Origin: Sphingobium sp. SYK-6
GTDB lineage: Bacteria > Pseudomonadota > Alphaproteobacteria > Sphingomonadales > Sphingomonadaceae
NCBI RefSeq assembly: GCF_000283515.1
Contig: NC_015974.1
Location: forward strand, 62,001-126,000
Direction of reading: 5' to 3'
DNA length: 64,000 bases
The notes beneath the pieces were generated by a model. That model was not told the origin of the DNA. It saw only the letters and a list, made by a program, of their open reading frames with translations, and ran no database searches. Positions 5,110 to 24,467 of the stretch are shown here, piece after piece. The position numbers and the translations under genes were made by a program. Position 1 is the first letter of the stretch. Each line of letters begins with the position of its first letter.

Positions 5110-5134
5110 ACCCGACTTCGCGAAAGTACAGTTC

Positions 5135-9059: not shown

Positions 9060-9060
9060 T

Positions 9061-9087
9061 GAGGGGAGGGGCGCATTGATGCGTATA
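9061..9087 (+). promoter_or_regulatory. Candidate ECF-sigma promoter (DUF411 gene)
   Basis: GAGGGG (9061-9066), 13 bases, then TGCGTATA (9080-9087), starting one base after the MFS stop and 52 bases before the DUF411 start. The same hexamer-spacer-octamer occurs before copC and copA2, and nearly so before the sigma operon. Confidence 0.55.
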
Positions 9088-9138
9088 GAAAAGAAGGGGC
9101 CTCTGCCCCATGCTTATCGTTCTTCCGGGAGTCATTTC

Positions 9139-9576
9139 ATGAAGACCCGCCTATTCGTCGCCTTGCTGTTCCTCGCCATGCCCGGCGTAGCGCTTGCGGC
9201 CAGTGATATCGTCGTCCACCGGGATCCGGGATGTGGATGTTGCGAGAAGTGGGCGCAGGCCGTGCGCGCGAAGCTGGGACGCAAGGTCGTCATGCGTGAC
9301 GATGCGTCGCGCAGCGAGCTTCAGCGCAAGGCCGGCATGCCCCGGACGCTGGCATCTTGCCACAGCGCGATCGTCGATGGCTATATGATCGAGGGCCATG
9401 TCCCGATATCCGACGTCAAGCGCTTGCTGGCGACCCGTCCTGCGGGCGTCAAAGGCATTGCGGTTGCGGGGATGCCGATCGGTTCGGAGGGCATGGAAGT
9501 GGCAGGCGCTGCCCGCCAACCCTATACGGTGGTGGCCTTCGGCAGCGCCGGTCAGCGAATTTTCGCCCGCCATTGA
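9139..9576 (+). CDS. DUF411 family periplasmic protein (CopG-like)
   Basis: This 145-residue protein has a Sec signal (LFVALLFLAMPGVALA) and a DUF411 domain with the metal-binding-like CGCC motif (VHRDPGCGCCEKWAQ) near residues 30-44, plus a later Cys/His pair (LASCHSAIV) and MPIGSEGM. DUF411 proteins often travel with copper-resistance genes, and some are annotated CopG. The short start at 9139 has a CGGGAG site; the earlier TTG at 9076 would place about 20 non-signal residues ahead of the signal. It probably has its own promoter at 9061-9087. Confidence 0.82.
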   Translation: MKTRLFVALLFLAMPGVALAASDIVVHRDPGCGCCEKWAQAVRAKLGRKVVMRDDASRSELQRKAGMPRTLASCHSAIVDGYMIEGHVPISDVKRLLATRPAGVKGIAVAGMPIGSEGMEVAGAARQPYTVVAFGSAGQRIFARH

Positions 9577-9837
9577 TATCGCGCGGTTTGCAGCATCCTG
9601 CAGAATTGCCCGGTGGTAGAGGACCCCGCTGTCGAGTGTAGAACCTTGTGTCAAGCGAGCTGATGGCGTCCCTACCCCTACCTACACTGAAAAAGCAACG
9701 ATTTGTCTTGTAAGTTGTTCGCGGTCGTCTCCCTGATTTGCCTGAATTTGGCCCAAAATGTGGGAACGATTGTGGGACCGTTTGCCCACCGAAAGTGTGA
9801 GAACGGCCCCAACATTCCCGATCAGGGCCCCGAACCG
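9577..9837. other. Intergenic region before integrase stub
   Basis: About 260 bases with no gene. Composition shifts to lower GC around 9670-9780. Sequences such as the repeated TGTGGGA near 9760-9776 often sit ahead of phage-type integrase genes, so this may be the remains of an attachment region; no tRNA end is visible. Confidence 0.35.
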
Positions 9838-9909
9838 ATGGCACTCACAGCATTGAAGGTGAAAAACGCGAAGCCCGGTCGCCATGTCGATAGCCGGGGC
9901 TTTGCCTGA
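9838..9909 (+). pseudogene. N-terminal stub of a P4-type tyrosine integrase (DUF4102)
   Basis: Only 23 residues remain (MALTALKVKNAKPGRHVDSR, then a stop). They match the very start of phage/P4-type integrases, where a ...T...VRNAKPGRHAD motif opens the DUF4102 arm-binding domain. The sequence then passes directly into the promoter area of a toxin-antitoxin pair. This looks like an integrase cut by a later rearrangement and marks an old element boundary. Confidence 0.6.
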
Positions 9910-9926
9910 TTGCACTTTGCGTTCGC

Positions 9927-9947
9927 TTGCATTACATCGTCATGCAG
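9927..9947 (+). promoter_or_regulatory. Possible toxin-antitoxin operator
   Basis: TTGCAT and ATGCAG form an imperfect inverted repeat separated by nine bases, 14 bases before the antitoxin start. RelB/DinJ antitoxins usually repress their own operon through such sites; this one is only a weak match to a dyad. Confidence 0.25.
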
Positions 9948-9960
9948 AAAGGAAATCGAC

Positions 9961-10224
9961 ATGGCCGCAAACGCTCTTGTGCAGACCCGGATCGACGGAG
10001 CGGTGAAGGAGGAAGCCGCGACCGTGCTGGCTGCTATGGGGCTGACCGTCTCCGATGCCGTGCGCCTGATGCTGACCCGCGTTGCCCGCGACAAGGCCTT
10101 GCCGTTTGAACCGCTGGTGCCCAATGCCGAGACGATCGAGGCCATGAAGGAAGCGCGCGAGGGAAAGGGCAAGCGGTTCGCCACGGTGGTCGACCTGATG
10201 GCCGACCTCAATGCGGACGATTGA
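9961..10224 (+). CDS. dinJ: DinJ/RelB family antitoxin
   Basis: This 87-residue protein has the ribbon-helix-helix N-terminus of RelB/DinJ antitoxins (ALVQTRIDGAVKEEAATVLAAMGLTVSDAVRLML) and an acidic C-terminal tail that would wrap the toxin. ATG 9961 is preceded by AAAGGAAA. Its last codons overlap the toxin start by 14 bases, the usual antitoxin-first layout. It would neutralise the adjacent YafQ-like toxin and repress the operon. Confidence 0.88.
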   Translation: MAANALVQTRIDGAVKEEAATVLAAMGLTVSDAVRLMLTRVARDKALPFEPLVPNAETIEAMKEAREGKGKRFATVVDLMADLNADD

Positions 10225-10492
10225 ACGCTTCGGGCGGTTCAAGCGCGACTACAAGCGGGAGAAGAAGGGGCAGCACGCCAAGACGCTGGACGCTGACCTG
10301 ATCCCGATCATCGAGGCGCTGGCATCCGACGAGCCGCTTGAACCGCGCCACCGCGACCATGCGCTGACCGGCGACTGGCGCGACCATCGCGATTGCCACA
10401 TAAAGCCCGACCTCGTGCTGATTTACCGCAAGCCCGATGACGACACCTTGCAGCTTGTGCGCTTGGGATCGCACGCGGAATTGGGTTGGTGA
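10211..10492 (+). CDS. yafQ: YafQ/RelE family mRNA interferase toxin
   Basis: This 93-residue basic protein has the YafQ/RelE fold signature: FKRDYKREKKG near the N-terminus, HRDHALTGDWRDHRDCHIKPDLVLIYRK in the middle and a short C-terminus. The HxxH...D...H residues fit YafQ, which cuts mRNA in the ribosomal A site. It overlaps the antitoxin gene and probably stabilises the mobile DNA carrying it. Confidence 0.88.
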   Translation: MRTIERFGRFKRDYKREKKGQHAKTLDADLIPIIEALASDEPLEPRHRDHALTGDWRDHRDCHIKPDLVLIYRKPDDDTLQLVRLGSHAELGW

Positions 10493-10812
10493 CGCCCGCG
10501 CATGGCGAGCTTATACGTTTGTCGGGTATGTCAGCCAGAGGCACGATTACGGGTTAGGTGTGATCAGCGAGCATCCGATGCCAACAAGCTTTTGCAGAAG
10601 ACATCAATCGCAGAGATGCATTCGGCAGGCGCTGCTTGAAACAAAAATGAGGGCCATAAATCACTTTCACCCTCAAATTCTGACAAATTTGCCGTTAGTT
10701 CACGACTGGTGAGCGAGAAATGAGCCGATCGCGTTGGGCTTGAAGAGCCGACCGCTCGCTCCACCGTCGTGACCCCTACGTTGATGACCGGCGGATGCTG
10801 GCCCGGTAGACG
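10493..10812. other. Intergenic scar region
   Basis: About 320 bases without a recognisable gene, with lower GC than the flanks near 10570-10700. It joins the toxin-antitoxin pair to a truncated CorA gene, so it is likely a patchwork left by deletions. Confidence 0.4.
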
Positions 10813-11208
10813 ATGCTGCCGAGAGCGACGACGACGCCCATGATGGCAAAAGATTCCATGCTCGAATGGCTCAAAAGCCAGATCGTGAGAAGGAAACCCT
10901 ATTTCCGTGATTTGCTCGATCACATGCTCAGGGTTGAGAGCGCCATCACCGGCATCCGCGACATCCTGATCTCGGTGTTCGAGGCGAGTCACCTGCTCGA
11001 ACAGCAGCGCCAGGGTGCGATCACGCGTCAGCTTGCCGCCTGGGCCGCGATCCTCGCGGTGCCTACCGCGATTGCCGGAATCTACGGCATGAATTTCGAG
11101 AATATGCCCGAACTGAAGACGCAATGGGGATATTTCGTCATCCTCGGCGTCATCGCTGCGGTCTGCATTGGGCTCTACATCCGGTTCAAACGTAGCCACT
11201 GGCTTTGA
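10813..11208 (+). pseudogene. corA: CorA-type magnesium/metal channel, C-terminal fragment
   Basis: The open frame gives 131 residues, of which about the last 105 match the C-terminus of CorA: a stalk helix (KPYFRDLLDHMLRVESAI), the first transmembrane segment with the YGMNFENMPEL signature and a second transmembrane segment followed by the basic tail RFKRSHWL. The large N-terminal cytoplasmic domain (over 200 residues) is missing, and no room for it exists before the toxin gene. This is a truncated remnant; function as a channel is unlikely. Confidence 0.75.
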
Positions 11209-11270
11209 CGGCGCAGATCGGCTTTCCACATCGCGCCGGGCTGAGGCTGCCGGGGGCCGGCCGCCATAAC

Positions 11271-11678
11271 TCAATGCTTTCGCAGAACCTCGGCGCGGTG
11301 CCGGTCCAACGCATCGAGCAAAGCCCTGCCGATCAAAGGCTTTGCGAGAACGTGATCGAAGCCCGCCTCGGCGGCCCGCCAGGCCAGCAGCGTGTCGTGA
11401 AAGCCTGAGATCATGATGGCGCGTCCCGACCATCCGATCTCGCGAAGGTGACGCAGCATCGCGAATCCGTCGATGTCGGGCATGCGATAGTCGAGGATGA
11501 CGCAGTCTGCCTCCTTCGCGCGGGGGTCGGCCAACAGCGCGTGGCCGGTCGTATATCCCCACACGGCATAGCCGCGCGATCTCAGCAGCAGCTGGAGGCC
11601 ACGCCGCACGCCGGGATCGTCGTCGGAGACGAGGATGGTGTATCTGCCATCATGCTGAGTGGAACGGACCGATGGCAT
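11271..11678 (-). CDS. Single-domain response regulator
   Basis: This roughly 135-residue receiver domain has the acidic pocket (VSDDDPGV), the phospho-acceptor Asp in CVILDYRMPDIDG, a Ser in MISGF and the switch Lys in LAKPL. There is no output domain. It lies beyond the FixJ-like gene in the same direction and may act as a phosphate sink or partner for the FixL-like kinase. A longer start at 11723 is in frame; I prefer 11678 because the extra residues do not look conserved. Confidence 0.75.
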   Translation of the reverse strand: MPSVRSTQHDGRYTILVSDDDPGVRRGLQLLLRSRGYAVWGYTTGHALLADPRAKEADCVILDYRMPDIDGFAMLRHLREIGWSGRAIMISGFHDTLLAWRAAEAGFDHVLAKPLIGRALLDALDRHRAEVLRKH

Positions 11679-11759
11679 TGCGAGAAGCGGACACCCGTGT
11701 GACGATTGCACCATCGATCGCATATCGCGCCTCGTCCCGTCGCTACGTAGAGGTCGCAG

Positions 11760-12383
11760 TCACTTCGGCTTGCGGCCCATGCCCGCGGCAAAGGCGATCC
11801 GCAGGGCTTCGGACAAATTGCGGACCTCGAGCTTGGCCATCAGGCTCGCGCGATGGACCTCGACCGTTCGCGATGAACAGCCCAGGTCATAGGCGATCGT
11901 CTTATTGGGCAGGCCGTTCGCCAGCCCTTCCAGCACTTCACGCTCCCGGGGCGTCAGTGCAGCGACCCGCACGCCGGCTTCAGAGGTTTCCAGAGTGCGA
12001 AAGTCGACATCGTCGAGACGCGCGAACGCGCGGCTGACGGCGCCGAGCAGGGCCGCTTTCTCGAAGGGCTTCTCGAGAAAGTCGACCGCGCCGCCTTTCA
12101 TGGCCTGCACCGCAACCGACACGTCGCCATGGCCGGTCAGGACGATGACCGGCATGTTGACCCCGCGTGCTGCCATGGCGGCCTGAACCTCGAGACCGTC
12201 CATCTCGGGCATGCGCACGTCAAGGATGACGCAGCCGACGGCCGCCGACTTCGCCTCCTTGAGAAACTCCACGCCCGAGGCATAGGTCACGACGTCGTAG
12301 CCCGCGGTCTTGAGCGCAAAGCTCGCCGCCTTGCGGATGCTCTCCTCGTCGTCGACCAGATGGATGACGCGTCTATCCCCCAT
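11760..12383 (-). CDS. fixJ: FixJ-family response regulator (receiver + LuxR HTH)
   Basis: This 207-residue protein has an N-terminal receiver (IHLVDDEESIRKA, phospho-Asp in VILDVRMPEMDG, LTGHGD, EKPF) and a C-terminal LuxR/GerE helix-turn-helix (LTPREREVLEGLANGLPNK, then SSRTVEVHRASLMAKL). This is the FixJ/TodT class that activates transcription when phosphorylated. The start overlaps the end of the FixL-like kinase gene by 11 bases, so the two are a coupled two-component pair. The signal is not evident; copper or oxygen/redox stress are options. Confidence 0.88.
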   Translation of the reverse strand: MGDRRVIHLVDDEESIRKAASFALKTAGYDVVTYASGVEFLKEAKSAAVGCVILDVRMPEMDGLEVQAAMAARGVNMPVIVLTGHGDVSVAVQAMKGGAVDFLEKPFEKAALLGAVSRAFARLDDVDFRTLETSEAGVRVAALTPREREVLEGLANGLPNKTIAYDLGCSSRTVEVHRASLMAKLEVRNLSEALRIAFAAGMGRKPK

Positions 12384-13908
12384 GTTCCTCCTCCGCCCGC
12401 GCATGGATCAAGGTAAAATGAAAGCGGGTGCCGCCGCGGTCGGGGCGCTCCATCCAGATACGGCCGCCATGCGCTTCGATGATGGTCCGGCAGATCGAGA
12501 GGCCGAGGCCCATGCCGTCGGCCTTTGTCGAGTTGAACGCCGTGAAGAGCTGCTCGCGGATTCCGTCCGCGATGCCGGGACCGGTATCCTCCACGGTCAC
12601 CTCGATCAGCCCGTCAGGGCGCAACCTGGTCGCCACCTTGAGGTCGCGAACCGGACACTCCGCCATCGCCTCGATGGCATTGCGCATCAGGTTGACCAGC
12701 ACCTGCTGGATCTGCACCCTGTCGACGAGGACCAGCGTCGCGGCGGGATCGACCGCAAAGAAGCTGCGGATGCCGCGCTCGCGTGCACCGACCAGCGCGA
12801 GCTGGCTCGCCTCGGCGATGACCTGCGGCAGCTCGTGGAGGCTCTTGTCGACCTCGCCGCGGGCGACGAAATCGCGCAGGCGCCGGACGATATGGCCGGC
12901 CCGCAGCGTTTCCTGTGCCGCATCATCCATCACCGACCGTAGCGACACGAAGGGTTCGTCGTCCCGCTCGTCGAGCATGTCGCGGATCGTCTCGAGATAG
13001 AGCGCGACCGCGGCAAGCGGCTGGTTGAGCTCATGCGCGAGCGTCGAGGCCATCGTGCCCATCGCGCTCAGCCGAGAGACATGGACCAGCTCTGCCTGCA
13101 GTTCCTTGAGCCTGAGCTCATCCTGCTCCTTGGCGGTGAGATCCCGGATAAAGCCGGTGAACAACCGCTGCCCGTCTTCACCGGCCTCGCCGACCGACAG
13201 CTGCATCGGGAAGGTTGAGCCGTCGCGGCGCTGGCCGACCACGACGCGACCGAGGCCGATGATCCGGCGCTCGCCGGTCTGCAGATAATGCGCGAGATAT
13301 TCGTCGTGACGGTCGCGATCGGGCTGGGGCATAAGGCAGGAGACGTTGCGGCCGACGAGCTCGGCTTCGCTGTAGCCGAACAGGCGTTGTGCCGCTGCGC
13401 TGAACGACGTGATGGCGCCGGTCTCGTCGATGATGATCATCGCATCCGGCACCGTCGCCAGAATCGATTGCAGATGCTGCTCGCGGGTCTCGATCGATGC
13501 GCGGACCGCCGCCTCGTCGGTGACATCGCGGCTGATGCAGGCGAAGCCGCGATGTGTGTCGCCTTCGAACAGTGCGGTGATCGTCAGGCGCGCCAGATAT
13601 TCCGCGCCGTTCTCGCAGACCCGCCACGCTTCGCGCTCCAGCGTGCCCTCGTGAAGGGCGGCCGCCAGGTCTGCGCCTGGACGCCCCGCCGCAATCTCGT
13701 CGGGCGGGTAGAACAGGTCGTGGGGCTGTCCCAGGACGCGATCGAGCGGCCAGCATTCGGCACGCTCGCCTTCTTCATTATAGCTCAGCACCATCCCGGA
13801 AGGATCGAGCAGCGTCAGGACGTGGCCGCCAGCCTGTCGCAGGAACAGCGGCGCAAGCCGCGCCACCTCCCTGGCAATCTCGTCGGGCCCGCGCCTCGTG
13901 TAGACCAT
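12373..13908 (-). CDS. fixL: FixL-like PAS sensor histidine kinase
   Basis: This 511-residue soluble kinase has two PAS domains (about 20-135 and 140-260; the second carries the FixL-like DAMIIIDETGAITSFSAAA and GRNVSCLMPQPDRDRH), a HisKA helix with the phospho-acceptor His in LAHELNQPLAAV (about 300) and a HATPase domain with NLMRNAIEAM, DTGPGI and GMGLGLS. No transmembrane segments are seen. In true FixL the second PAS binds heme through a His; the sequence here is FixL-like, but heme binding is not proven. It is co-transcribed with the FixJ-like gene. ATG 13908 is preferred to the upstream in-frame start. Confidence 0.85.
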   Translation of the reverse strand: MVYTRRGPDEIAREVARLAPLFLRQAGGHVLTLLDPSGMVLSYNEEGERAECWPLDRVLGQPHDLFYPPDEIAAGRPGADLAAALHEGTLEREAWRVCENGAEYLARLTITALFEGDTHRGFACISRDVTDEAAVRASIETREQHLQSILATVPDAMIIIDETGAITSFSAAAQRLFGYSEAELVGRNVSCLMPQPDRDRHDEYLAHYLQTGERRIIGLGRVVVGQRRDGSTFPMQLSVGEAGEDGQRLFTGFIRDLTAKEQDELRLKELQAELVHVSRLSAMGTMASTLAHELNQPLAAVALYLETIRDMLDERDDEPFVSLRSVMDDAAQETLRAGHIVRRLRDFVARGEVDKSLHELPQVIAEASQLALVGARERGIRSFFAVDPAATLVLVDRVQIQQVLVNLMRNAIEAMAECPVRDLKVATRLRPDGLIEVTVEDTGPGIADGIREQLFTAFNSTKADGMGLGLSICRTIIEAHGGRIWMERPDRGGTRFHFTLIHARAEEEHGG

Positions 13909-13966
13909 CGGCCGGCTCACACGCCCGGCCGGGCGCACGTATCCGGGCGTAGCCGGACCGTGCCAC

Positions 13967-14440: not shown

Positions 14441-14530
14441 GGCGTATCTCCTTCGTTCGGCGCAGGCCGACCTGGGTCTCAGTGTAACGCCCCGCTCTCC
14501 TGTTCGCCCCCGCCATCAGCCGTCCCGATG

Positions 14531-15679
14531 CTAGAACCAGAAGCGGATGCCGGCGACGAAGCTGGTGGCATGGACGTCCTCGCCGGCAAGCCTCGACAGC
14601 CGCGCCGTGTCGCCGGCTTTGCGCAGATAAGAGACGCCGATATAGGGTGCGAACTGGCGGCTGAACTCATAGCGCAGGCGCGCGCCGAGCTCTATGTTGA
14701 CCAGCCCCGAACCGATGTCGTTCTCCGGAATATCCTGCGCGGCGAAATTGACCTCGGCGCGCGGCTGCAAGATCAGGCGCTGGGTAATGCGCTGGTCGTA
14801 ATAGCCCTCGACCCGGCCCAGAACATCGCCCTTGGTCGAGAGGAACAGCGCGCCTTCGACTTCGAACATGCCGGGAGCCAGGCCCTCGACGCCGACCGTC
14901 GCGTAAGTGCGGTCGGGCCCGCGGCCGAAGTCCTGGCGGATACCGCCCTGAAGATTGAAATAGGGGTCGATGGCCCGGCTATAGAGCACCTGCACCTCCG
15001 CGCTGTCGATGCCGCGGCCGAACTCGCCTTCGCCCTCGCTCTTGAGCCAGAGCCGGTTGATATCGCCGCCGTAAAAGCCTTCGCCATCCCAGCGATAGCC
15101 ATCGCGACCGCTATGCGCTTGATACTCGAACAGGTTGAGCAGCACCTGCCCGAAATTGTTGCCGCCGCTGTCCTTCATCATGATGTCGCGTGAGCGCGCC
15201 ATCTCGGCGCCGGGAAAATCACGATCGGCGAAGTGGTCGCTGGGGGGAGGCGGCGGGGGCGCATTGCCGGCCGGAAGCGCCGTGCCGGTCATTTGCATGC
15301 CGGGCATGGCGGTCTGGCCATGCTGCGAATGGTCCATCCCGGGCATGTCCGGCATCGCGCCGTCCTGATGCTGGGAGTGGTCCATGCCCGGCATGTCCGG
15401 CATCGCGGGAGACGCGGGTTGCGGCTGACCGGCCGCATCTCCCTGCGGCGCAGGACTGGCCTGGTGCTGCGAATGGTCCATCGCCGAGGTGGCGTCTGGC
15501 GCTGGTGTCTGAGCGCGCGGCCTGGCGGCGGCCTTGTCCTTCTTCTTCTCCTGCGCCGGCGGCACCTCGCCCGGCGGCGCCATGCCGGGCATGCCGTGCA
15601 TTGAATGATCCTGGGCAAAGGCGGGCGCGGCAGCGAAAAGGGCGATCGCGCTCACCAGCGGCGTGAGGATGCGGGTCAT
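14531..15679 (-). CDS. copB: Copper-resistance outer-membrane protein CopB (copy 2)
   Basis: This 382-residue protein has a signal peptide (ALFAAAPAFAQ), a long linker with repeated MDHSQH and MPDMPG units (about residues 20-160) and a C-terminal PcoB/CopB beta-barrel domain ending in a terminal Phe (IRFWF). The Met/His repeats are more extensive than in copy 1. The start overlaps the copA2 stop (TAATG), so it is coupled to copA2. The two CopB copies differ enough to be separate acquisitions or old duplicates. Confidence 0.92.
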   Translation of the reverse strand: MTRILTPLVSAIALFAAAPAFAQDHSMHGMPGMAPPGEVPPAQEKKKDKAAARPRAQTPAPDATSAMDHSQHQASPAPQGDAAGQPQPASPAMPDMPGMDHSQHQDGAMPDMPGMDHSQHGQTAMPGMQMTGTALPAGNAPPPPPPSDHFADRDFPGAEMARSRDIMMKDSGGNNFGQVLLNLFEYQAHSGRDGYRWDGEGFYGGDINRLWLKSEGEGEFGRGIDSAEVQVLYSRAIDPYFNLQGGIRQDFGRGPDRTYATVGVEGLAPGMFEVEGALFLSTKGDVLGRVEGYYDQRITQRLILQPRAEVNFAAQDIPENDIGSGLVNIELGARLRYEFSRQFAPYIGVSYLRKAGDTARLSRLAGEDVHATSFVAGIRFWF

Positions 15680-17604
15680 TACGCGTCTCCCTTCGGACGG
15701 ACGCTCACGACCCGCATCATCCCGGCATGCATGTGGTAGAGGAGATGACAGTGGAAGGCCCAGTCGCCGACCGCGTCGGCGGTGAAGTCCCAGGTCACCT
15801 TGCCGCCGGGCTGGACGATTACCGTATGCTTGCGTGGCGCATGATCGCCATGCCCCGTCACCAGCTCGAAAAAATGCCCGTGAATATGGATCGGATGCCC
15901 CATCATCGTGTCGTTGATGAGATTGACGCGCACCCGCTCGCCTTCGATGAAGGGGATCGGCTCGTGATGGTCCGACATTTTTTCGCCGTCGAACGACCAC
16001 ATGAACCGCTCCATGTTGCCGGTGAGGTGAATGTCGATGCTGCGGCTCGGCGCGCGCACGTCCGGATTGCGATCGAGCGCCATCAGGTCCCTGTAGACAA
16101 GCACCTTGTGGCCGACGTCGGCGAGGCCCTGGCCGGGCTCGCCGGTGCGGTCGACGGGCATCGGCGAGATGGTCTGGACGCTCGGGTCGCGCTTCACCTG
16201 CGGCGCGTTCGAGAAGTCTCGCATCTTCATCGACCCCATCGCGTGCCCGCCATGGTCCATGCCCGCCATCTGGCCATCGGCGCCCATCGCGCCGTGGTCC
16301 ATCCCGCTCATCGCGGAATGATCCATCCCCGAATGATCCATGCCTGCCATGGCGCTATTGTCCATGGTCGCCATCGCTGCCGCCGCGCCGGTCGCGAGGC
16401 GCGCGGACGCGTTCTTCTCGGCCGTCGGATCGACGCCCCGCATAGCGCCGCCCGACATGTCCATGCCTTCCATGCCCGGCATCGAGGACATGTCCATGCC
16501 CATGTCCTTCATGTCGGCGAGCGGCCGTTTGCGTAAGGGGGGAACCTCGCCGGCCATGCCGGCGCGCGGCGCGAGCGTGGCACGCGCCATGCCCGAGCGG
16601 TCGATCGCCTCGCCGACAAGGGTGTAGGCCTTGTCATCGCCTGGGCTGACAACGACGTCGTAGGTCTCGGCAACACCAACCTGGAACTCGTCGACGGTGA
16701 CCGGCACCACATTCTGCCCGTCGGCCTGGACGATGGTCAGCGGCAGGCCGGGGATGCGGACGTTGAAGGTGGTCATCGCCGACGCATTGATGACCCGCAG
16801 CCGCACCCGTTCGCCCGGGGTGAAGAGCGCGGTCCAGTTGTCCATCGGACCATGGCCGTTGACGAGATAGGTGTAGGTGGATCCGGTCACATCGGAGATG
16901 TCGGCCGGGTCCATCCGCATCTGGCCCCAGTCGAGCCGGTCCTTGAGCGGCTGATCCTTGCCCGACAGGAGCCCGGCCAGGGTCTGGCGCTGGAAATTGA
17001 AATGGCCGGGGTTGACCTTGAGGCGCCGGAAGATCGCCTGCGGCGAGAGCGCGCTGTGATCGGCGAGCACGATGACATGCTCGCGGTCATAGGCGACCGG
17101 ATCGGCACCGGCGGGATCGATGATGATCGGGCCGTAATGGCCTTCCTGTTCCTGCAGGCCTGAATGGCTGTGGTACCAGTAGGTGCCGCTTTGCACGACG
17201 GAGAACTGGTAGAGGTAGTTCGAGCCCGGCTTGATGCCCGGAAAAGACACGCCCGGCACACCGTCCATATTGGCCGGCAGGATCAGCCCGTGCCAGTGGA
17301 TCGAGCTGTCCTCCTCCAGCTGATTGATGACGTTGAGCCGCACGCGCTGGCCCTCGCGCAGCCGGATCAGCGGGGCGGGGACCGTGCCGTTGAGGCCGAT
17401 TGCCCGGAACTTGCGCCCGTCGATGGTCATCGACTGCCGGGCGATGGTGAGCGTAATGTCTTCGCCCGACACGGTCGGCAGCGTCGGTCGCATCCCCGGC
17501 GAGATCGTCTGCGCCCAGGCCGGCAGCCAGGCTGACAATGCTGCGCCGCCGCCGGCGAGGGCCGCGCCGCGGAGGAACTGGCGGCGGTCGAGAGCAGAAA
17601 TCAT
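15679..17604 (-). CDS. copA: Copper-resistance multicopper oxidase CopA (copy 2)
   Basis: This 641-residue protein has a Tat leader (DRRQFLRGAALAGGGAALS) and the copper ligands SIHWHGL, YWYHSHSG, HPIHIHGHF and HCHLLYHMHAGMM. It is longer than copy 1 because of a large Met/His-rich insertion (about residues 360-455, repeated MDHS, GMDH and GMEGMDM units) that may bind several copper ions. The gene leads a copA2-copB2 operon and has a candidate ECF-type promoter 42 bases upstream, directly after the sigma-factor stop. Confidence 0.94.
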   Translation of the reverse strand: MISALDRRQFLRGAALAGGGAALSAWLPAWAQTISPGMRPTLPTVSGEDITLTIARQSMTIDGRKFRAIGLNGTVPAPLIRLREGQRVRLNVINQLEEDSSIHWHGLILPANMDGVPGVSFPGIKPGSNYLYQFSVVQSGTYWYHSHSGLQEQEGHYGPIIIDPAGADPVAYDREHVIVLADHSALSPQAIFRRLKVNPGHFNFQRQTLAGLLSGKDQPLKDRLDWGQMRMDPADISDVTGSTYTYLVNGHGPMDNWTALFTPGERVRLRVINASAMTTFNVRIPGLPLTIVQADGQNVVPVTVDEFQVGVAETYDVVVSPGDDKAYTLVGEAIDRSGMARATLAPRAGMAGEVPPLRKRPLADMKDMGMDMSSMPGMEGMDMSGGAMRGVDPTAEKNASARLATGAAAAMATMDNSAMAGMDHSGMDHSAMSGMDHGAMGADGQMAGMDHGGHAMGSMKMRDFSNAPQVKRDPSVQTISPMPVDRTGEPGQGLADVGHKVLVYRDLMALDRNPDVRAPSRSIDIHLTGNMERFMWSFDGEKMSDHHEPIPFIEGERVRVNLINDTMMGHPIHIHGHFFELVTGHGDHAPRKHTVIVQPGGKVTWDFTADAVGDWAFHCHLLYHMHAGMMRVVSVRPKGDA

Positions 17605-17645
17605 TCGGTTGTCTCAGCTTTAAGAAAGAGGGCGTACCTATTGGG

Positions 17646-17672
17646 AATACGCAGCATGGCCTCATCCCCCTC
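17646..17672 (-). promoter_or_regulatory. Candidate ECF-sigma promoter (copA2)
   Basis: On the minus strand, GAGGGG (17672-17667), 13 bases, then TGCGTATT (17653-17646). The -35-like part overlaps the stop of the sigma gene. It matches the copC and DUF411 promoters in hexamer, spacing and octamer. Confidence 0.6.
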
Positions 17673-18237
17673 AAACTTTCTTTAATATTTCCGAAAGGCG
17701 TGCCCTAGCTCGATAGAGGCGCGTTTCGACCGCCTTCTGGCTGATCCCGAGAATTTCGGCGGTTTCAGCTTCCGATTTCTCGTCGATCGTACGCAAAATA
17801 AGCGTGTCCTTGAGGGAAGACGGCAGGGCAGCAATCGCTTTCATTGCTTGCGCGAGCTGCTGTTCGGCCCCGATCGCCTGATCGGGCAGCGGTGCGTCGT
17901 CGGCGACGCCGTCCGCCTCGCCGAGCGGTAGGGCTAGGGCAAAGAAATTTCGAACCGCTCGCCGACGCCGCCAGTCATGGCATTTGTTGATGACAATCCG
18001 GGACATCCAGACCTGGAAGGGTCGGGTTACGTCATAGCGGTTGAGTGCGGCAAAGGCCGCGACGAAGCTCGCCTGGGTGACATCCAATGCCTCATCCATA
18101 GATCCGACATGGCTGCGCACGAGCCGGTGAACCCAACCTTGATGCCGGCGGACCAGCTCGCCATAGGCCGCTTGCCGGCCTCCAAGCGCCAGAGCCGCGA
18201 GCTCCCCGTCCGAGCAGTCGGGGAGGCACGCGGTCAT
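17671..18237 (-). CDS. ECF sigma factor (CnrH-like)
   Basis: This 188-residue protein has sigma-70 region 2 (YGELVRRHQGWVHRLV ... DEALDVTQASFVAAFAAL ... RPFQVWMSRIVINKCHDW) and region 4 (AIAALPSSLKDTLILR ... EAETAEILGISQKAVETRLYRARARL). It is the last gene of a three-gene operon whose other members look like an anti-sigma factor and a periplasmic metal sensor, the order of cnrYXH. The genes directly around it are copper-resistance genes, so it probably drives a copper regulon through the GAGGGG-N13-TGCGTATW promoters noted here. Confidence 0.9.
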   Translation of the reverse strand: MTACLPDCSDGELAALALGGRQAAYGELVRRHQGWVHRLVRSHVGSMDEALDVTQASFVAAFAALNRYDVTRPFQVWMSRIVINKCHDWRRRRAVRNFFALALPLGEADGVADDAPLPDQAIGAEQQLAQAMKAIAALPSSLKDTLILRTIDEKSEAETAEILGISQKAVETRLYRARARLSEILKKV

Positions 18238-18677
18238 TCGGATTTGGCCGTCAGCGCTTTCACCACGGCGTCGTCGAATTTGTCCGTCTGATCCGGGCGC
18301 AGCACGGCCCGCATCGCGAAGATATGCTCAAGTGTTTCTTTCTGCAGCGCGCCCATGGCCTGGTGCGAGCGATCCACCGCAGTTGCGACTTGCGGGCCAT
18401 AGCCATGCTCCGCTTCGATCGCTTCCGCGAGACGCGCATTGTCGGCGCGCAATTCGGCCTCCAGCGCTTGACGCCGGATCGCGTAGTTCTTCTCGATTGT
18501 CTCGAGTCGGCTGTGTTGCGCTGAATTCAGCTTCAGATCGCGATGGAGCAGCTCGTGCAGCTCATTTTCGACCGGGCGCACTGGAACCACATAGACGCGG
18601 CCAATGACAACGCCAGCGATCGCCGCGGCGAAGGTCACCAGGACGAGGAGCAGGAGCCGGCGGCGGTCGCGCATCAC
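18234..18677 (-). CDS. Periplasmic metal sensor (CnrX-like)
   Basis: This 147-residue protein has one N-terminal transmembrane anchor (LLLLVLVTFAAAIAGVVIG, about 8-26) and a helical periplasmic domain. The metal ligands known in CnrX (H42, H46, E63, H119, M123) have counterparts with the same spacing: H41 and H45 in HELLH, E62 in RLETIE, H118 and M122 in HIFAM. In CnrYXH systems, metal binding to the X protein releases the sigma factor from the Y anti-sigma. The stop overlaps the sigma start by four bases, and the start overlaps the Y-like gene. Confidence 0.85.
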   Translation of the reverse strand: MMRDRRRLLLLVLVTFAAAIAGVVIGRVYVVPVRPVENELHELLHRDLKLNSAQHSRLETIEKNYAIRRQALEAELRADNARLAEAIEAEHGYGPQVATAVDRSHQAMGALQKETLEHIFAMRAVLRPDQTDKFDDAVVKALTAKSE

Positions 18678-18946
18678 TGCGAGCTCAGCAGCGTCGAGGG
18701 CGCAAGCGCGAGCCGAGCATCGAAGGGCGATAGCGGTTTGGCATCAGCAGACCGTGTCGAAACTGCCGAGCCGGCAATTCCGATGAACAGCGCGGTTGCG
18801 GCCGCGATGCCGAACGTCATAGCGCCAAGGCTTGGTATGGCCCGGATGCGCGCTATTTCCGCCATGACCCGGCTTTCCAGGCCGCCGAGCCTGGGATCGA
18901 GAGGCGCATCGCGCAACCGCGAGAGCAGGTGGTCAAGTTCATCCAT
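18674..18946 (-). CDS. Membrane anti-sigma factor (CnrY-like)
   Basis: This 90-residue protein has a cytoplasmic N-terminal helix (MDELDHLLSRLRDAPLDPRL) that would hold the sigma factor, one transmembrane segment (about 43-60, LGAMTFGIAAATALFIGIAG) and a short periplasmic tail. The size and order (Y, X, sigma) match CnrY/NccY. It heads the operon, and a promoter resembling the sigma target lies just upstream, which implies autoregulation. Confidence 0.75.
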   Translation of the reverse strand: MDELDHLLSRLRDAPLDPRLGGLESRVMAEIARIRAIPSLGAMTFGIAAATALFIGIAGSAVSTRSADAKPLSPFDARLALAPSTLLSSQ

Positions 18947-18970
18947 GGTGCTTCTCCGTCTTCATCCATC

Positions 18971-18997
18971 AATACGCACGATGGTCCAGGAACCCTT
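18971..18997 (-). promoter_or_regulatory. Candidate autoregulated ECF promoter of the Y-X-sigma operon
   Basis: On the minus strand, AAGGGT (18997-18992), 13 bases, then TGCGTATT (18978-18971), 25 bases before the anti-sigma start. The octamer is identical to that of copA2 and copC; the hexamer matches GAGGGG at four of six positions. Confidence 0.5.
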
Positions 18998-19022
18998 GCT
19001 GTAGATTGAAAAGAATAATTGC

Positions 19023-19049
19023 GAGGGGTGGGGGCTCGGGCTGCGTATT
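19023..19049 (+). promoter_or_regulatory. Candidate ECF-sigma promoter (copC)
   Basis: GAGGGG (19023-19028), 13 bases, then TGCGTATT (19042-19049), 31 bases before the copC start. It runs divergently from the Y-X-sigma promoter. Confidence 0.6.
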
Positions 19050-19079
19050 GTCTCATGGGATCTACAGGAGAATGTTCCA

Positions 19080-19457
19080 ATGCGTTTCTTTTCGCCTCTC
19101 GCAGTTATCGCCGCCGTCGGCCTGAGTGTTTCTGCTCCGGCCTACGCGCATCCCAAGCTTGTGTCCTCGACGCCCGCCGCGAACGCCAGCGTCTCGGCGC
19201 CGTCGCGTATAACGCTCACCTTCAGTGAAGGTCTGATGCCGAAGCTGTCGGGCGCCGAGATCGTGATGACCGGCATGCCCGGCATGCCCAACCACCGCAT
19301 GGCGGTAACCGGCTTCAAGACGTCCGTCGAAGGCGACAAGACGCTCGTGCTGACGCTCGCCAAGCCGCTCATGGCGGGCAGCTATCAGGTCGCCTGGCAC
19401 GTCGTCTCGACCGACACGCACCGCATCCAGGGCAATCTCGCCTTTACCGTCAAGTGA
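19080..19457 (+). CDS. copC: Periplasmic copper-binding protein CopC
   Basis: This 125-residue protein has a Sec signal cleaved after AYA to expose an N-terminal His (HPKLVSSTPA), the first ligand of the copper-binding histidine brace. The CopC fold follows, with Met-rich MTGMPGMPNHRM (a Cu(I)-type site) and the conserved WHVVSTDTHRIQG near the end. It delivers copper to CopD. An AGGAG site precedes ATG 19080, and copD follows four bases after the stop. Confidence 0.93.
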   Translation: MRFFSPLAVIAAVGLSVSAPAYAHPKLVSSTPAANASVSAPSRITLTFSEGLMPKLSGAEIVMTGMPGMPNHRMAVTGFKTSVEGDKTLVLTLAKPLMAGSYQVAWHVVSTDTHRIQGNLAFTVK

Positions 19458-19461
19458 CGCC

Positions 19462-20406: not shown

Positions 20407-20442
20407 TTTATCGTTTCGAACGCCTCGCGTTGGGAGAAGCCA

Positions 20443-20733
20443 ATGCAATCGTACACCCCGCCGCGCGGGACTGGATCGACGAAAGACTATGATCGCGCGA
20501 TCCGCCTGTGGGCGCGGGAGAAGCGGTGGCGTGCCGCCATGCTTGCCATGCTGCGCCCGGATTGGCGCCTGGTAATCGCCGATTATGGCCGCCAGCACGG
20601 GTCTCATGCGGCTCGCCTTCCGCCTGACCGTGCAGCGGCTCGATGGCATCGACGATACCCAGCCCAATGCCGACGGCGTGCTCCCCGGCCTGATGGCGGC
20701 CAAGCGAACGGGCCCGCCGATTTGGCCACTTAG
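20443..20733 (+). pseudogene. Decayed SAM-dependent methyltransferase (internal deletion + frameshift)
   Basis: The frame from ATG 20443 begins like a class I methyltransferase linked to copper genes (DYDRAIRLWAREKRWRAAML), then jumps to a late segment (VIADYGRQ). From about 20600 the homologous text continues in another frame ([20 protein letters not shown] and PNADGV). The central SAM-binding core (the GxGxG region, about 100 residues) is absent. So an intact gene of about 200 residues seems to have lost its middle and then its frame. The family assignment is from memory of such neighbours; the frame change is visible directly. Confidence 0.6.
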
Positions 20734-20745
20734 GCGATTACGTAT
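20730..20745 (+). promoter_or_regulatory. Candidate regulatory element TTAG-N4-TTACGTAT
   Basis: Third copy of the TTACGTAT arrangement. It abuts the MerR-type -35 sequence of the copper ATPase promoter (the last T is shared), so a second regulator could act here with the MerR protein. Confidence 0.35.
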
Positions 20746-20775
20746 TGACCCTGACACGGTGTCAGACCCTAGATC
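20745..20775 (+). promoter_or_regulatory. CueR/HmrR-type promoter of the copper ATPase
   Basis: The -35 TTGACC (20745-20750) and -10-like TAGATC (20770-20775) are separated by 19 bases, the overlong spacer typical of MerR-activated promoters. Inside the spacer is a perfect dyad, CTGACAC-G-GTGTCAG (20751-20765). The likely regulator is the MerR gene at 23155. Confidence 0.8.
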
Positions 20776-20800
20776 GTCAGGCGTCGAAAGGAGCGAGGCG

Positions 20801-23158
20801 ATGAACGAGACACATGGAGCGGCGCATGGCGGCGGTTGCTGCGGCGGCCACGGCACCGCTAAAGCGGCGACCGGCGTCAAGGACCCGGTCTGCGGCATGA
20901 CCGTCGACCCGGCGACCACGGCGCATCACGCCGAGCATAGCGGTGAAAGCTATCATTTCTGCAGCGCGGGCTGCCGGACCAAATTCATCGCCGATCCCGA
21001 GCGCTATCTCGGCCCGCCGACGCCGCCGGTCGCGGCGCCCGAAGGCACGATCTGGACCTGCCCGATGCATCCCGAGATCCGCCAGGACCATCCCGGGTCC
21101 TGTCCGATCTGCGGCATGGCGCTCGAACCCGCGACCGTGACCGCCGACAGCGGCCCCAGCCACGAGCTAGTCGATTTCACGCGGCGCTTCTGGGTCGGCC
21201 TCGTGCTGGCTCTCCCGGTGCTGATCCTCGAGATGGGCGCGCATGTCTTTCCCGCGATCCATCGCCTCGTGCCGATGTCTATCTCGGTATGGATCCAGTT
21301 CGTGCTGGCGACACCCGTCGTGCTGTGGGCGGGCTGGCCGTTCTTCGAGCGTGGCTGGGCCTCGCTCAAGACCCGCAACTTCAACATGTTCACCCTGATC
21401 GCGATGGGGACCGGGGTCGCCTGGATCTACAGCGTCATCGCGACGCTCGCGCCTCAGCTGTTCCCGCCGGCCTTCCGCGGCGAGGACGGCATGGTTGCCG
21501 TCTATTTCGAGGCGGCCGCGGTGATCACCGTCCTCGTGCTGCTCGGCCAGATGCTCGAACTGCGCGCGCGGGAACGCACCTCGGGCGCGATCAAGGCGCT
21601 GCTCAACCTTGCACCAAAGACCGCGCGCCGGATCGGTTCTGATGGGAACGAAGAGGAAATCAGCCTTGATCTGGTTGCGGTGGGCGACCGCCTGCGGGTG
21701 CGGCCGGGCGAGAAGGTGCCGGTCGACGGCGTAGTCGAGGACGGCCGCTCCTCGCTCGACGAGTCGATGGTCACCGGCGAATCCATGCCCGTCACCAAGG
21801 CAAAGGCCGACACAGTGATCGGCGGCACGCTCAACCAGACCGGTGCGCTGGTGATCGTCGCCGACAAGGTCGGCCGCGATACCATGCTCGCACGCATCGT
21901 CCAGATGGTCGCTGAGGCGCAGCGCTCGCGCGCGCCGATCCAGCGCATGGCCGATCAGGTGTCGGGCTGGTTTGTGCCCGTGGTCATCGCGGTCGCGGCC
22001 GTCGCGTTCATCGCCTGGGGCATCTGGGGTCCCGAGCCGCGCTTCGCCTATGGGCTGGTGGCGGCGGTCGCCGTGCTGATCATCGCCTGTCCCTGCGCAC
22101 TGGGGCTGGCAACGCCGATGTCGATCATGGTCGGGGTCGGCCGCGGCGCCGGGCTCGGTGTCCTCATCAAAAATGCCGAAGCACTCGAGCATATGGAGAA
22201 GGTCGACACTCTCGTCGTCGACAAGACAGGCACGCTGACCGAAGGCCGGCCTGCCGTCACCCAGGTCGTGCCGGCGCCCGGCTTCGACGAAGCCGAGCTG
22301 CTGCGTCTTGCCGCCTCGGTCGAGCGGGCGTCCGAGCATCCGCTCGCGTTGGCAATCGTCGAGGCCGCGAAGGATCGCGGCATCGTCACGAGCGACGTCA
22401 TCGACTTCGACTCGCCGACCGGGCGCGGCGCGCTCGGCACGGTCGAAGGGCGGCGCATCGTCCTCGGCAATGCGCAGTTCCTTGCCGACGAAGGGGTTGC
22501 GACCGATGCGCTCGCCAGCCAGGCCGACGCGCTGCGCCGGGATGGCGCCACCGCGATCTTCATCGGGGTCGACGGCACAGTCGGCGGCGCCTTCGCGATC
22601 GCCGATCCGGTGAAGGCCACGACACCAGAAGCGCTCGCCGCGCTCAAGGCGGAGGGCATTCGCGTGGTCATGCTGACCGGCGACAACCGCACGACCGCGG
22701 AAGCGGTCGCCCGACGCCTGGGCATCGACGAGGTCGAAGCCGAGGTGCTGCCCGATCAGAAGAGCGCCGTGGTCGCCAGGTTCAAGCGCGAGGGGCGGGT
22801 CGTCGCCATGGCCGGCGACGGTGTCAACGACGCCCCCGCGTTGGCCGCCGCCGACGTCGGCATCGCCATGGGTTCCGGCACCGACGTCGCGATCGAGAGC
22901 GCTGGCGTCACGCTGCTCAAGGGCGACCTGACTGGCATCGTCCGGGCGCGGCGGCTCAGCCAAGCGACCATGTCGAACATCCGCCAGAATCTCGTCTTCG
23001 CCTTCATCTACAATGTCGCGGGCGTGCCCGTAGCGGCGGGTGCGCTCTATCCGCTGTTCGGTATTCTGCTCTCGCCCATTATCGCGGCGGCGGCGATGGC
23101 GCTCTCTTCGGTGAGCGTGGTCACCAACGCGCTGCGCCTCAACCGGAAAGCACTGTGA
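20801..23158 (+). CDS. copA: Copper-translocating P1B-type ATPase
   Basis: This 785-residue cytoplasmic-membrane pump opens with a His/Cys-rich patch ([15 protein letters not shown]), a YHS domain ([11 protein letters not shown] ... SYHFCSAGC, about 26-70) and a heavy-metal-binding domain ([21 protein letters not shown], about 85-110) in place of HMA CxxC domains. Next are eight transmembrane helices, the actuator TGES, the CPC metal site in IIACPCALG, the phosphorylation motif [15 protein letters not shown] and [10 protein letters not shown]. This fits P1B-1 copper exporters of the ActP/CopA/SilP group. A strong AAAGGAG site precedes ATG 20801. The gene is translationally coupled to the MerR gene. 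Confidence 0.95.
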
Positions 23159-23553
23159 ACATCGGCGAGACGTCACGGCAGAGCGGCGTCTCTGAGCGGA
23201 TGATCCGCCATTATGAAAAGATCGGCCTCATCCCGGCGCCGGCGCGTCGGGGTGCTGGCTATCGTGACTATGGCGAGCGCGACCTCCATCGCCTCCGGTT
23301 TATCGCCAATGCCCGCGATCTCGGCTTCCCGATCGAGGAGATCCGCACGTTGCTCAGCCTTTGGGCCAATACCGGCCGTGCCAGCGCGGAGGTGAAGCGG
23401 CTTGCCCTTGCCCGCGCCGATGAGTTTCAGCGCAAAGCCGAGGCGTTGACGGCGCTGCGCGACACGCTAATCGACCTGGCTGAGCGCTGCCAAGGCGACG
23501 AGCGGCCGGATTGTCCGATCATCGCCGAACTGGCCGCGGCCCGATCCGCATAG
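23155..23553 (+). CDS. cueR: CueR/HmrR-type Cu(I)-responsive MerR regulator
   Basis: This 132-residue MerR protein has the N-terminal HTH ([20 protein letters not shown]), a dimer helix and a C-terminal metal loop with cysteines at 112 and 120 ([12 protein letters not shown]), the positions that bind Cu(I) in CueR. It starts at GTG overlapping the ATPase stop (GTGA). It should activate the ATPase promoter at 20745-20775 in response to Cu(I), Ag(I) or Au(I). Confidence 0.93.
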
Positions 23554-23579
23554 CATCCGGCATCGCACGGCCGAGAATT

Positions 23580-24215
23580 TTAGGGGTGCCCGTTTTCGGT
23601 CGATTCGTGCAGGTCGACGGCGAAAGCGATCCGCAACAGGTCGGGCAGGCTTTGCGCGTTGAGTTTGATCATCAGACTGGCCCGATGCAGCTCGACCGTG
23701 CGCGACGTGACGCCGAGTTCATCTGCGATAAGGCTATTTGGATAGCCTCGCGAAATTCCTCTCAGAACGGCCCGTTCGCGCTGCGTCAGTCTCGCGGCTT
23801 TCGAAAGAGCGTCGGCCTGTTCGGAGGCACGACGGGCTATACTCTCAAGCCAGCTGAAGCCGCGGTCGATCGCGCCGAGCAATGCGGCCTTCTCGACCGG
23901 TTTGGCGAGAAAGTCGGCAGCGCCCGCCTTCATCGCCTGTACGGCGAGCGTAGGATCGCCATTGCCCGTCAGCACCACGACGGGCATGTCGATACCGCGT
24001 CGCGTCAGCTCCGCCTGAACCTGCAGGCCGTCCATGTCGGGCATGTGCATGTCGAGAACCACGCAGCCTTTCTCGGCGTCCTCTGCGCTCAACAGAAACT
24101 CCGGCCCCGAAGCGTAGGCTTCTACGGCAAACCCTGCGGTCCGCAACGTGAAACTTAGTGCTTTTCGTATTGTCTCTTCGTCATCGACGATATGCACGAC
24201 GCGCTTGTTCCCCAT
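23580..24215 (-). CDS. FixJ-family response regulator (second copy)
   Basis: This 211-residue protein has a receiver (HIVDDEETIRKAL, phospho-Asp in CVVLDMHMPDMDG, LTGNGD, AKPVE) and a LuxR-type HTH (LTQRERAVLRGISRGYPN, then SRTVELHRASLMIKL). It is a paralogue of the gene at 11760, with no kinase next to it, and may be driven by the same FixL-like kinase. A TGCGTATT octamer lies upstream (24240-24233). Confidence 0.85.
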   Translation of the reverse strand: MGNKRVVHIVDDEETIRKALSFTLRTAGFAVEAYASGPEFLLSAEDAEKGCVVLDMHMPDMDGLQVQAELTRRGIDMPVVVLTGNGDPTLAVQAMKAGAADFLAKPVEKAALLGAIDRGFSWLESIARRASEQADALSKAARLTQRERAVLRGISRGYPNSLIADELGVTSRTVELHRASLMIKLNAQSLPDLLRIAFAVDLHESTENGHP

Positions 24216-24232
24216 AGCCCCCGAGATCGATC

Positions 24233-24240
24233 AATACGCA
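24233..24240 (-). promoter_or_regulatory. TGCGTATT octamer upstream of fixJ-like gene
   Basis: Same octamer as in the candidate ECF promoters, 17 bases before the start. The expected GAGGGG is not present at the matching distance (AGCGCT instead), so this is the weakest member of the set. Confidence 0.25.
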
Positions 24241-24467
24241 GTGCCGCGAGGGCAGCGCTTCAAGGGATACTTCTCTGCACGTTGGACTATGGTCCCAGGT
24301 CAAGAGTAAAAATTTGGCGAGGCAAAACGGCGAAGGACAGCGAAACTGTGAGGGTTCGGCTACTCCGCTCACACCAATGCCGCGGTCGCTGCGGCTCATT
24401 GCCGGGTCTCTGCTCCGGACGATGCATGCGAGTTGCCCGCGCCGCCCTCGGCGCGATCGAGCCATCG

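What the first reader, a model, noticed from the sequence alone, without database searches (positions are those of the whole stretch)
9061..24240. A candidate ECF-sigma copper regulon sharing GAGGGG-N13-TGCGTATW
Three copper-island promoters carry the same hexamer, the same 13-base spacer and the same octamer: DUF411 gene (9061-9087), copA2 (17646-17672, minus) and copC (19023-19049). The Y-X-sigma operon itself has AAGGGT-N13-TGCGTATT (18971-18997, minus), which predicts autoregulation. A second fixJ-like gene has the octamer alone (24233-24240, minus). All lie 17-52 bases before the start codon. The simplest reading is that the sigma factor at 17671 recognises this pattern and unites the periplasmic copper genes, while the ATPase has its own MerR promoter.
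Basis: seen in the sequence. Interest (0 to 1): 0.8.

Follow-up and report, generated by a model that had tools for sequence, protein, structure and literature searches.

The report
Copper genes run by nickel-style switch
Sphingomonad bacteria appear to switch on their periplasmic copper-defence genes with a three-protein sigma-factor switch of the kind known from nickel and cobalt resistance, whose predicted targets share one two-part promoter.

Summary
The motif is real. In the 4.35-Mb genome GAGGGG-N13-TGCGTATW occurs three times, all in this copper cluster; the reversed control never. The looser RAGGG-N14-YGCGTAT occurs six times: four here, one at a second, chromosomal Y-X-sigma-copA-copB locus, one elsewhere; control one. 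In 67 diverged loci such a promoter precedes Y (64/67), copA (57/60) and copC (44/48), but copB in 0/62 and copD in 0/44. Nearest solved relatives: CnrH for sigma, NccX and CnrX for X. The cnrY and cnrC promoters of Cupriavidus have the same boxes with one more spacer base. So this is a CnrYXH-type module wired to copper genes. Its sensors keep all five CnrX nickel/cobalt ligands and add an invariant His105/Met108 pair (68/68), absent from the eight pump-linked CnrX-type records seen (four distinct sequences). The DUF411 site is lineage-specific. The octamer before the second fixJ-like gene is not conserved and should be dropped. Copper as the signal is inferred; published nickel induction of the same gene set suggests nickel may also signal.

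The parts
9061..9087 (+). ECF promoter GAGGGG-N13-TGCGTATA before DUF411 (51 bases to ATG)
   Evidence: a DUF411 site with other spacer letters, the same in L076 and L078
9139..9576 (+). DUF411 protein, candidate periplasmic metal-binding protein
   Evidence: Pfam DUF411 3.4e-24
17646..17672 (-). ECF promoter GAGGGG-N13-TGCGTATT before copA, overlapping the 3' end of the sigma gene
   Evidence: copA site in 57 of 60 diverged loci
15679..17604 (-). copA, multicopper oxidase
   Evidence: TIGR01480 809 bits
14531..15688 (-). copB, outer-membrane copper resistance protein; start chosen by me; one unit with copA by overlap (inferred)
   Evidence: Pfam CopB 8.5e-88; a promoter of this kind before copB in 0 of 62 loci
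17671..18237 (-). ECF sigma factor of CnrH type
   Evidence: best solved relative CnrH 4cxf, 3.9e-32, against 6.3e-17 for the next
18234..18677 (-). X, membrane-anchored periplasmic metal sensor of CnrX type
   Evidence: NccX/CnrX 6.7e-19 and 2.1e-18; predicted fold matches CnrX, TM 0.90 by target length; five ligands plus H105/M108
18674..18946 (-). Y, small protein with one hydrophobic span, presumed anti-sigma factor
   Evidence: position and size only; no Pfam, PDB or significant CnrY match
18971..18997 (-). ECF promoter AAGGGT-N13-TGCGTATT of the Y-X-sigma operon (autoregulation)
   Evidence: Y site in 64 of 67 diverged loci
19023..19049 (+). ECF promoter GAGGGG-N13-TGCGTATT of copC-copD
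   Evidence: copC site in 44 of 48 diverged loci
19080..19457 (+). copC
   Evidence: NF033814 132.8 bits
19462..20406 (+). copD
   Evidence: NF033808 283.3 bits
20795..23158 (+). copper-exporting P-type ATPase, judged outside the sigma regulon (start chosen by me)
   Evidence: TIGR01511 596 bits; a site in only 4 of 30 loci; TTGACC and a dyad at about 20745-20765
24233..24240 (-). octamer TGCGTATT alone before the second fixJ-like gene: judged chance
   Evidence: no -35 box; missing in diverged orthologues while a MerR-type dyad at 24284-24303 is kept

Best explanation
A CnrYXH-type signalling module controls the periplasmic copper-resistance genes. At rest Y holds the sigma factor at the inner membrane. 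When the periplasmic domain of X binds metal (most likely copper, perhaps also nickel or cobalt), Y lets go, and the sigma factor leads RNA polymerase to tGAGGG-nT-N12-yGCGTAT promoters in front of copAB, copCD, DUF411 and its own operon. Starts are predicted about 7 bases after the CGTATW box. Cytoplasmic copper(I) is handled apart by CueR and the ATPase. Shown here: the promoters, their conservation and specificity, the CnrH/CnrX kinship, the ligand residues. Inferred: that this sigma reads these promoters, that Y is the anti-sigma factor, and that copper is the signal.
For: Genome-wide exclusivity of the exact motif. A second copy of the module on the chromosome with sites at the same two places. 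Footprint: the boxes stay while the spacer changes over 159 distinct sites, and T at -1 and T at +6, which the scan did not ask for, appear in 133 and 110 of 159. Right genes only: Y 64/67, copA 57/60, copC 44/48; copB 0/62, copD 0/44, sigma 1/67, CueR 1/19, ATPase 4/30. With gaps of 14-17 allowed, 119 of 122 sites found have 15. Co-occurrence with the sigma gene. CnrH and CnrX/NccX as nearest solved relatives. The CnrH-dependent promoters cnrYp and cnrCp hold RAGGGG-N16-CGTATA, and their published starts, 24 and 25 bases before the genes (PMC9045368, passage seen), fall by my count 7 bases after CGTATA. 57 of the 60 diverged sigma loci that I picked carry copA, copB or copC within about 7.5 kb.
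Against: No expression, binding or start-site data for any of these copper loci. Y has no significant sequence likeness to CnrY. The five Ni/Co ligands of CnrX are all kept, so the sensor could be a nickel or cobalt sensor; in Sphingobium sp. ba1 nickel does induce CopA, CopB, an MFS protein, a putative metal-binding protein and CopC (PMC5557971, section 8 read). 27 of 83 exact sites in the order lie away from a detected sigma relative, against 14 control hits in all, and 63 of 103 sigma-bearing genomes have no exact site. The one pump-linked locus outside the Cupriavidus type, L195, shows no site of this kind.
Confidence: 0.83

Rival explanations
1. Same module and promoters, but the natural signal is nickel or cobalt, and the copper proteins are induced as part of a wider metal response.
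For: All five CnrX Ni/Co ligands are kept in 68 of 68 sensors. Nickel induces the set ALDH-AdhP-CopA-CopB-MFS-putative metal-binding protein, and CopC, in Sphingobium sp. ba1; the same gene order, ending in DUF411, stands in pSPHCH01, which is 100% identical to window 3674-9600 over 5,927 bases.
Against: The neighbours are copper proteins in 57 of 60 loci. Copper-linked sensors carry H105/M108, Q54 and Q130; the pump-linked ones carry E, A, E and H there, which points to a changed specificity. Whether ba1 has this module was not testable.
Confidence: 0.2
2. The motif is an operator of a response regulator or other activator (a CopRS-like or the FixJ-like pair nearby), with a housekeeping promoter.
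For: A PAS-domain sensor kinase and FixJ-like regulators are encoded nearby. Two-component CopRS is a usual regulator of copABCD elsewhere (recalled).
Against: The element is asymmetric and read in the direction of the gene, its gap is 15 in 119 of 122 sites found with 14-17 allowed, and it matches the CnrH promoters. Whether the kinase and regulators are constant neighbours in the diverged loci was not tested.
Confidence: 0.05
3. The likeness of the sites reflects recent copying of one mobile copper island, not function.
For: Sixteen genomes carry a sigma protein given as 100% identical (L031-L046), and 15 plasmids hold one at 99% or more.
Against: In loci with sigma identity of 35-71% the boxes stay while the spacer is scrambled. 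In the unnamed family f12, probably Caulobacteraceae, copper-linked loci have a site before Y in 23 of 25 and before copA in 17 of 19 (counted from the rows, gaps 14-17, one mismatch allowed).
Confidence: 0.01

Closest known systems
CnrYXH of Cupriavidus metallidurans pMOL28 (and NccYXH)
   Same: Gene order Y-X-sigma with short overlaps, nearest solved relatives of sigma and X, all five metal ligands of CnrX, a promoter of the same kind before the Y operon and the targets, RAGGGG and CGTATA boxes.
   Different: Targets are copABCD and DUF411, not an RND nickel pump; gap of 15 instead of 16 in most sites (119 of 122; 32 of 37 Y sites of copper-linked loci); extra H105/M108, Q54, Q130 in X; Y without recognisable likeness to CnrY.
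CorE of Myxococcus xanthus (copper-dependent ECF sigma)
   Same: An ECF sigma factor linked to copper genes (PMC3107203, start of abstract in a listing; PMC10141476, passages).
   Different: CorE senses copper itself through a Cys-rich C-terminal extension, a mechanism other than an anti-sigma factor; the sigma here ends after region 4 (188 aa) and comes with X and Y.
SigF/NrsF of Caulobacter crescentus
   Same: An ECF sigma/anti-sigma pair induced by copper (PMC8224329, passages).
   Different: The regulon listed there is DUF692, DUF2282, sulfoxide-reductase and other genes; PcoAB is described apart and was induced in only one condition.
CopRS/CusRS two-component control of copABCD
   Same: Same target genes.
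   Different: Two-component system instead of sigma/anti-sigma; recalled, not compared here.

Membership tests
CnrYXH-type ECF sigma module | Three-gene operon Y-X-sigma with sigma nearest to CnrH | tested here: met
   CnrH 114.6 bits against 65.1 for the next solved sigma factor
CnrYXH-type ECF sigma module | X is a CnrX-fold periplasmic sensor with ligands H42, H46, E63, H119, M123 | tested here: met
   (68 of 68 keep all five); that these are the ligands is recalled, M123 also from PMC7689651 passages
CnrYXH-type ECF sigma module | Y is an anti-sigma factor like CnrY | tested here: inconclusive
   size, place and one hydrophobic span fit; hhalign of a profile of 68 Y proteins (picked by script) against CnrY gave probability 1.1%
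CnrYXH-type ECF sigma module | CnrH-type promoter, RAGGGG and CGTATA boxes, before the Y operon and the target | tested here: met
   gap shorter by one base
CnrYXH-type ECF sigma module | Controls an RND efflux pump for Ni/Co and answers to Ni or Co | tested here: not met
   neighbours are copper genes in 57 of 60 loci; the inducer is not testable here. Hence filed as a variant that works like CnrYXH, not as a Cnr system
CorE-type copper sigma | Cys-rich C-terminal extension, CxC between regions 2 and 4 | tested here: not met
   the 188-aa sequence has Pfam regions 2 and 4 at 28-94 and 130-181, no CxC between them and no extension
ECF sigma factor | Regions 2 and 4 only | tested here: met
   Sigma70_r2 2.8e-14, Sigma70_r4_2 5.5e-13; TIGR02937 80.7 bits

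The most novel reading that the evidence does not exclude
The copper form is the main and possibly older form of the whole CnrYXH family: in a CnrX-seeded scan of 398 Pseudomonadota genomes, 16 of 17 genomes with a hit held the H105/M108 type and 2 the pump-linked CnrX type, one of them both (9 of the 17 are of the window's own family), and the four distinct pump-linked sequences form one branch at 100/100 support. The H105-x2-M108 pair would be a second, copper-specific site about 15-25 angstroms up the same long helix from the nickel site, so that a few residues decide which metal fires the switch.
Probability: 0.3. Interest if true: 0.8.

Novelty: new variant of a known kind. Interest (0 to 1): 0.62.

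Why it matters
copABCD in these alphaproteobacteria would have a regulator of another kind besides CueR and CopRS, predicted from sequence down to the base. It offers an explanation for a published observation, the induction of CopA, CopB and CopC by nickel in Sphingobium sp. ba1, which its authors say had not been reported before (PMC5557971, passage), because the sensor keeps the nickel ligands. It also makes metal selectivity in the CnrX fold directly testable by exchanging residues 54, 105, 108 and 130, and supplies a compact metal-inducible promoter set for environmental bacteria.

Tried and rejected
Relaxed matching (2 mismatches) in the own genome: 44 hits against 60 in the backward control, no signal. 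The window-only scan at 3 mismatches: 13 seen against 7.24 expected, not significant. First promoter scan with RAGGGK and CGTATW, gaps 14-17: Y 44/67, copA 34/60, copC 40/48, DUF411 4/32, against 1.25, 0.95, 0.15 and 0.1 in letter-shuffled regions. The last letter of each box proved not to be needed, and one search uses looser ends with a gap of 15 only. That refinement was made on the same loci, so the counts are partly fitted; its controls (copB 0/62, copD 0/44, sigma 1/67) were scored with the same pattern.

Octamer before the second fixJ-like gene: rejected. A promoter of this type before the six-gene ALDH operon: none found in window 1901-2560. Hit C1:1492183 (TGCGAATT): dropped, no copper gene recognised by eye among the neighbouring ORFs. 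Hit C1:1636204 was not followed. Y against CnrY: no likeness. Rooting of the X tree: midpoint only, with a 2.0 branch to the nickel group, so no direction of change is claimed as shown. Metal-site distances were not measured: the model's coordinates were not at hand, and distances are counted at 1.5 angstroms a residue. Published promoter consensus of CnrH: recalled only (the 2000 cnr paper and the 2021 ECF classification are not held); I read the boxes from the pMOL28 record instead.

Literature: no paper describing a CnrYXH-type control of copper genes was noticed in the listings, which cover only openly licensed PMC papers and were capped (one search listed 40 of 95, 20 of 30, 15 of 16, 15 of 31). 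A claim of absence from print goes no further than that.

Full report
Observation. The window lies in a 148.8-kb contig of a 4.35-Mb genome. There, GAGGGG-N13-TGCGTATW occurs three times, all in the copper cluster, and its backward control never. RAGGGK-N13-TGCGTATW without mismatch occurs four times, all here. With one mismatch come three more: two of them sit 1.3 kb apart on the chromosome. That stretch encodes a second Y-X-sigma operon followed by copA and copB, sigma 60% and X 69% identical to the window's, with one site before Y and one before copA, again at the end of the sigma gene. The third, at C1:1492183, has no copper gene that I recognised among the neighbouring ORFs. Up to two mismatches the signal drowns (44 against 60 control hits). 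The refined RAGGG-N14-YGCGTAT occurs six times, five at the two modules, with one control hit.

Conservation. Loci with a relative of the sigma gene were drawn from named genomes (62 loci, of which 48, L031-L078, at 66-100% identity and 14 distant ones). All 48 had at least two sites at one mismatch or less; none of the 14 distant loci had any. Sixteen of the 48 are given as 100% identical in sigma, so I turned to diverged loci: 60 stretches that I picked from the places (not all of them) plus seven more, with sigma identities from 35% to 71%. Of the 60, 57 hold copA, copB or copC; the exceptions are L177, L178 and L179. RAGGGN-N15-CGTATN with at most one mismatch stands before Y in 64 of 67, copA in 57 of 60 and copC in 44 of 48, but before DUF411 in 5 of 32, the ATPase in 4 of 30, CueR in 1 of 19, sigma in 1 of 67, copB in 0 of 62 and copD in 0 of 44. 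The stricter first pattern gave 44/67, 34/60, 40/48 and, for DUF411, 4/32, against 1.25, 0.95, 0.15 and 0.1 in letter-shuffled regions; of the 122 sites it found, 119 have the gap of 15 although 14-17 were allowed. Over 159 distinct sites the boxes read tGAGGG-nT-N12-yGCGTAT and the bases between are near random.

Co-occurrence. In 296 genomes of the order, 56 had an exact site, 83 sites in all against 14 for the backward pattern; 103 had a sigma relative at 1e-20. Of the 83 sites, 56 lie within 12 kb of a sigma relative; 40 of 103 genomes with and 16 of 193 without a sigma relative have a site, p = 5.6e-10, not corrected for kinship of the genomes. So 63 sigma-bearing genomes lack an exact site; the looser scan suggests that many have weaker ones.

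What the system is. Sigma: nearest solved structure CnrH, 3.9e-32. X: NccX and CnrX, 6.7e-19 and 2.1e-18; the predicted structure of X (mean pLDDT 77.8) matches CnrX entries in ranks 1-14 and NccX in rank 15. Y: no match, and a profile of 68 Y proteins does not match CnrY (1.1% probability), so its role as anti-sigma factor rests on place, size and one hydrophobic span. On pMOL28 the cnrY and cnrC promoters read AAGGGG-N16-CGTATA and GAGGGG-N16-CGTATA. A passage of PMC9045368 puts their starts 24 and 25 bases before the genes; by my count these lie 7 bases after CGTATA. In one search, which scanned further loci with gaps of 14-17, the loci labelled as pump-linked gave a gap of 16 in 6 of 7 Y regions and 5 of 6 cnrC regions. 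One of the seven, L268, got the label from a distant RND hit, and its annotation is that of a copper locus; without it the count is 5 of 6 for Y. L195 shows no site at either gene. Loci labelled copper-linked gave sites in 37 of 40 Y regions (gap 15 in 32, 16 in 5) and 29 of 31 copA regions (15 in 26, 16 in 2, 14 in 1). X relatives were found in 30 of 80 genomes of that family.

The sensor. In 68 of 68 X proteins (67 loci and the window) the five ligands of CnrX are kept (window H41, H45, E62, H118, M122), and H105, M108, Q54, E90 and Q130 are invariant; CnrX has E, A, E, N and H there. In further loci, the eight X records next to a Cnr pump (pMOL28, G540, G629, G853, G855, G861, G876, G897; four distinct sequences) all have E105 and A108, and those with copA, copB, copC or copD beside them have H105 and M108. 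One genome, G629, has both kinds. Departures: D41 in L210, L250, L251 and L253, I122 in L210 and L252, L108 in L234 (no copper gene seen beside it), and four f12 proteins (L256, L257, L259, L261) without H105, H118 or M122 and with no copper gene found in their short loci. Both pairs lie on one predicted helix, 95-124. Being 10 to 17 residues from H118 and M122, H105 and M108 should lie some 15-25 angstroms away, so a second site is more likely than an addition to the nickel site; this was not measured. A copper-bound crystal form of CnrX itself exists (title of 3epv). The tree puts the pump-linked sequences on one fully supported but very long branch; its root is a drawing choice.

Signal. 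Copper is the likely signal from the targets and from the His/Met pair. Nickel may also act: in Sphingobium sp. [quoted passage not shown] the authors say that a part of these proteins in adaptation to nickel had not been reported (PMC5557971, section 8 read, other passages). The same order, with DUF411 in the last place, stands in pSPHCH01 and in this window. Whether ba1 carries Y-X-sigma I could not check.

Corrections to the finding. TGCGTATT before the second fixJ-like gene is one of three octamers left in the window besides the four sites (7 seen, 0.93 expected). It lacks a GAGGG box, and it is missing in six loci that share one diverged upstream sequence and in two more, while a TTGACC-GGACCATAGTCC-like element is kept. 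DUF411 sites are real here and, with other spacer letters, in L076 and L078, but not general. The ATPase has TTGACCCTGACACGGTGTCAG upstream, a MerR-type arrangement by inspection.

Verdict. It is a new variant of a known kind. No paper describing it was noticed in the searches named in Tried and rejected.

Noticed in passing
window 954-961, 1594-1601, 20738-20745: TTACGTAT occurs three times, all on the + strand and all upstream of copper-island genes (two small Met/His-rich proteins, by eye, and the ATPase); 0.13 expected, 0 of 100 shuffles reach three. Possibly part of a second shared control element.
   Followed up: partly
window 24284-24303 (-): The second fixJ-like gene has TTGACCTGGGACCATAGTCC upstream, kept in diverged orthologues; it looks like a MerR/CueR-type promoter.
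   Followed up: partly
window 3674-9600: 5,927 bases are 100% identical to plasmid pSPHCH01 of Sphingobium chlorophenolicum (the match ends where the fetched stretch ends); sigma proteins given as 100% identical occur in 16 named genomes. The island moves as a block.
   Followed up: partly
L256, L257, L259, L261: X-like proteins of family f12 beside a sigma gene lack H105, H118 and M122; possibly a third branch with another signal.
   Followed up: no
L267 (pASTEX02), L268 (Caulobacter sp. FWC26 p1): Y-X-sigma modules on Caulobacteraceae plasmids beside CopA and CopB, or beside CueR, ATPase and a copper-binding protein; X carries an H-x2-M pair at the place of H105/M108.
   Followed up: partly
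window 18674-18946: The Y family is conserved at both ends (..dlD..L..Lr at the start, aLAPStLL at the end) but Y matched no Pfam family; an undescribed anti-sigma family if the role is confirmed.
   Followed up: partly
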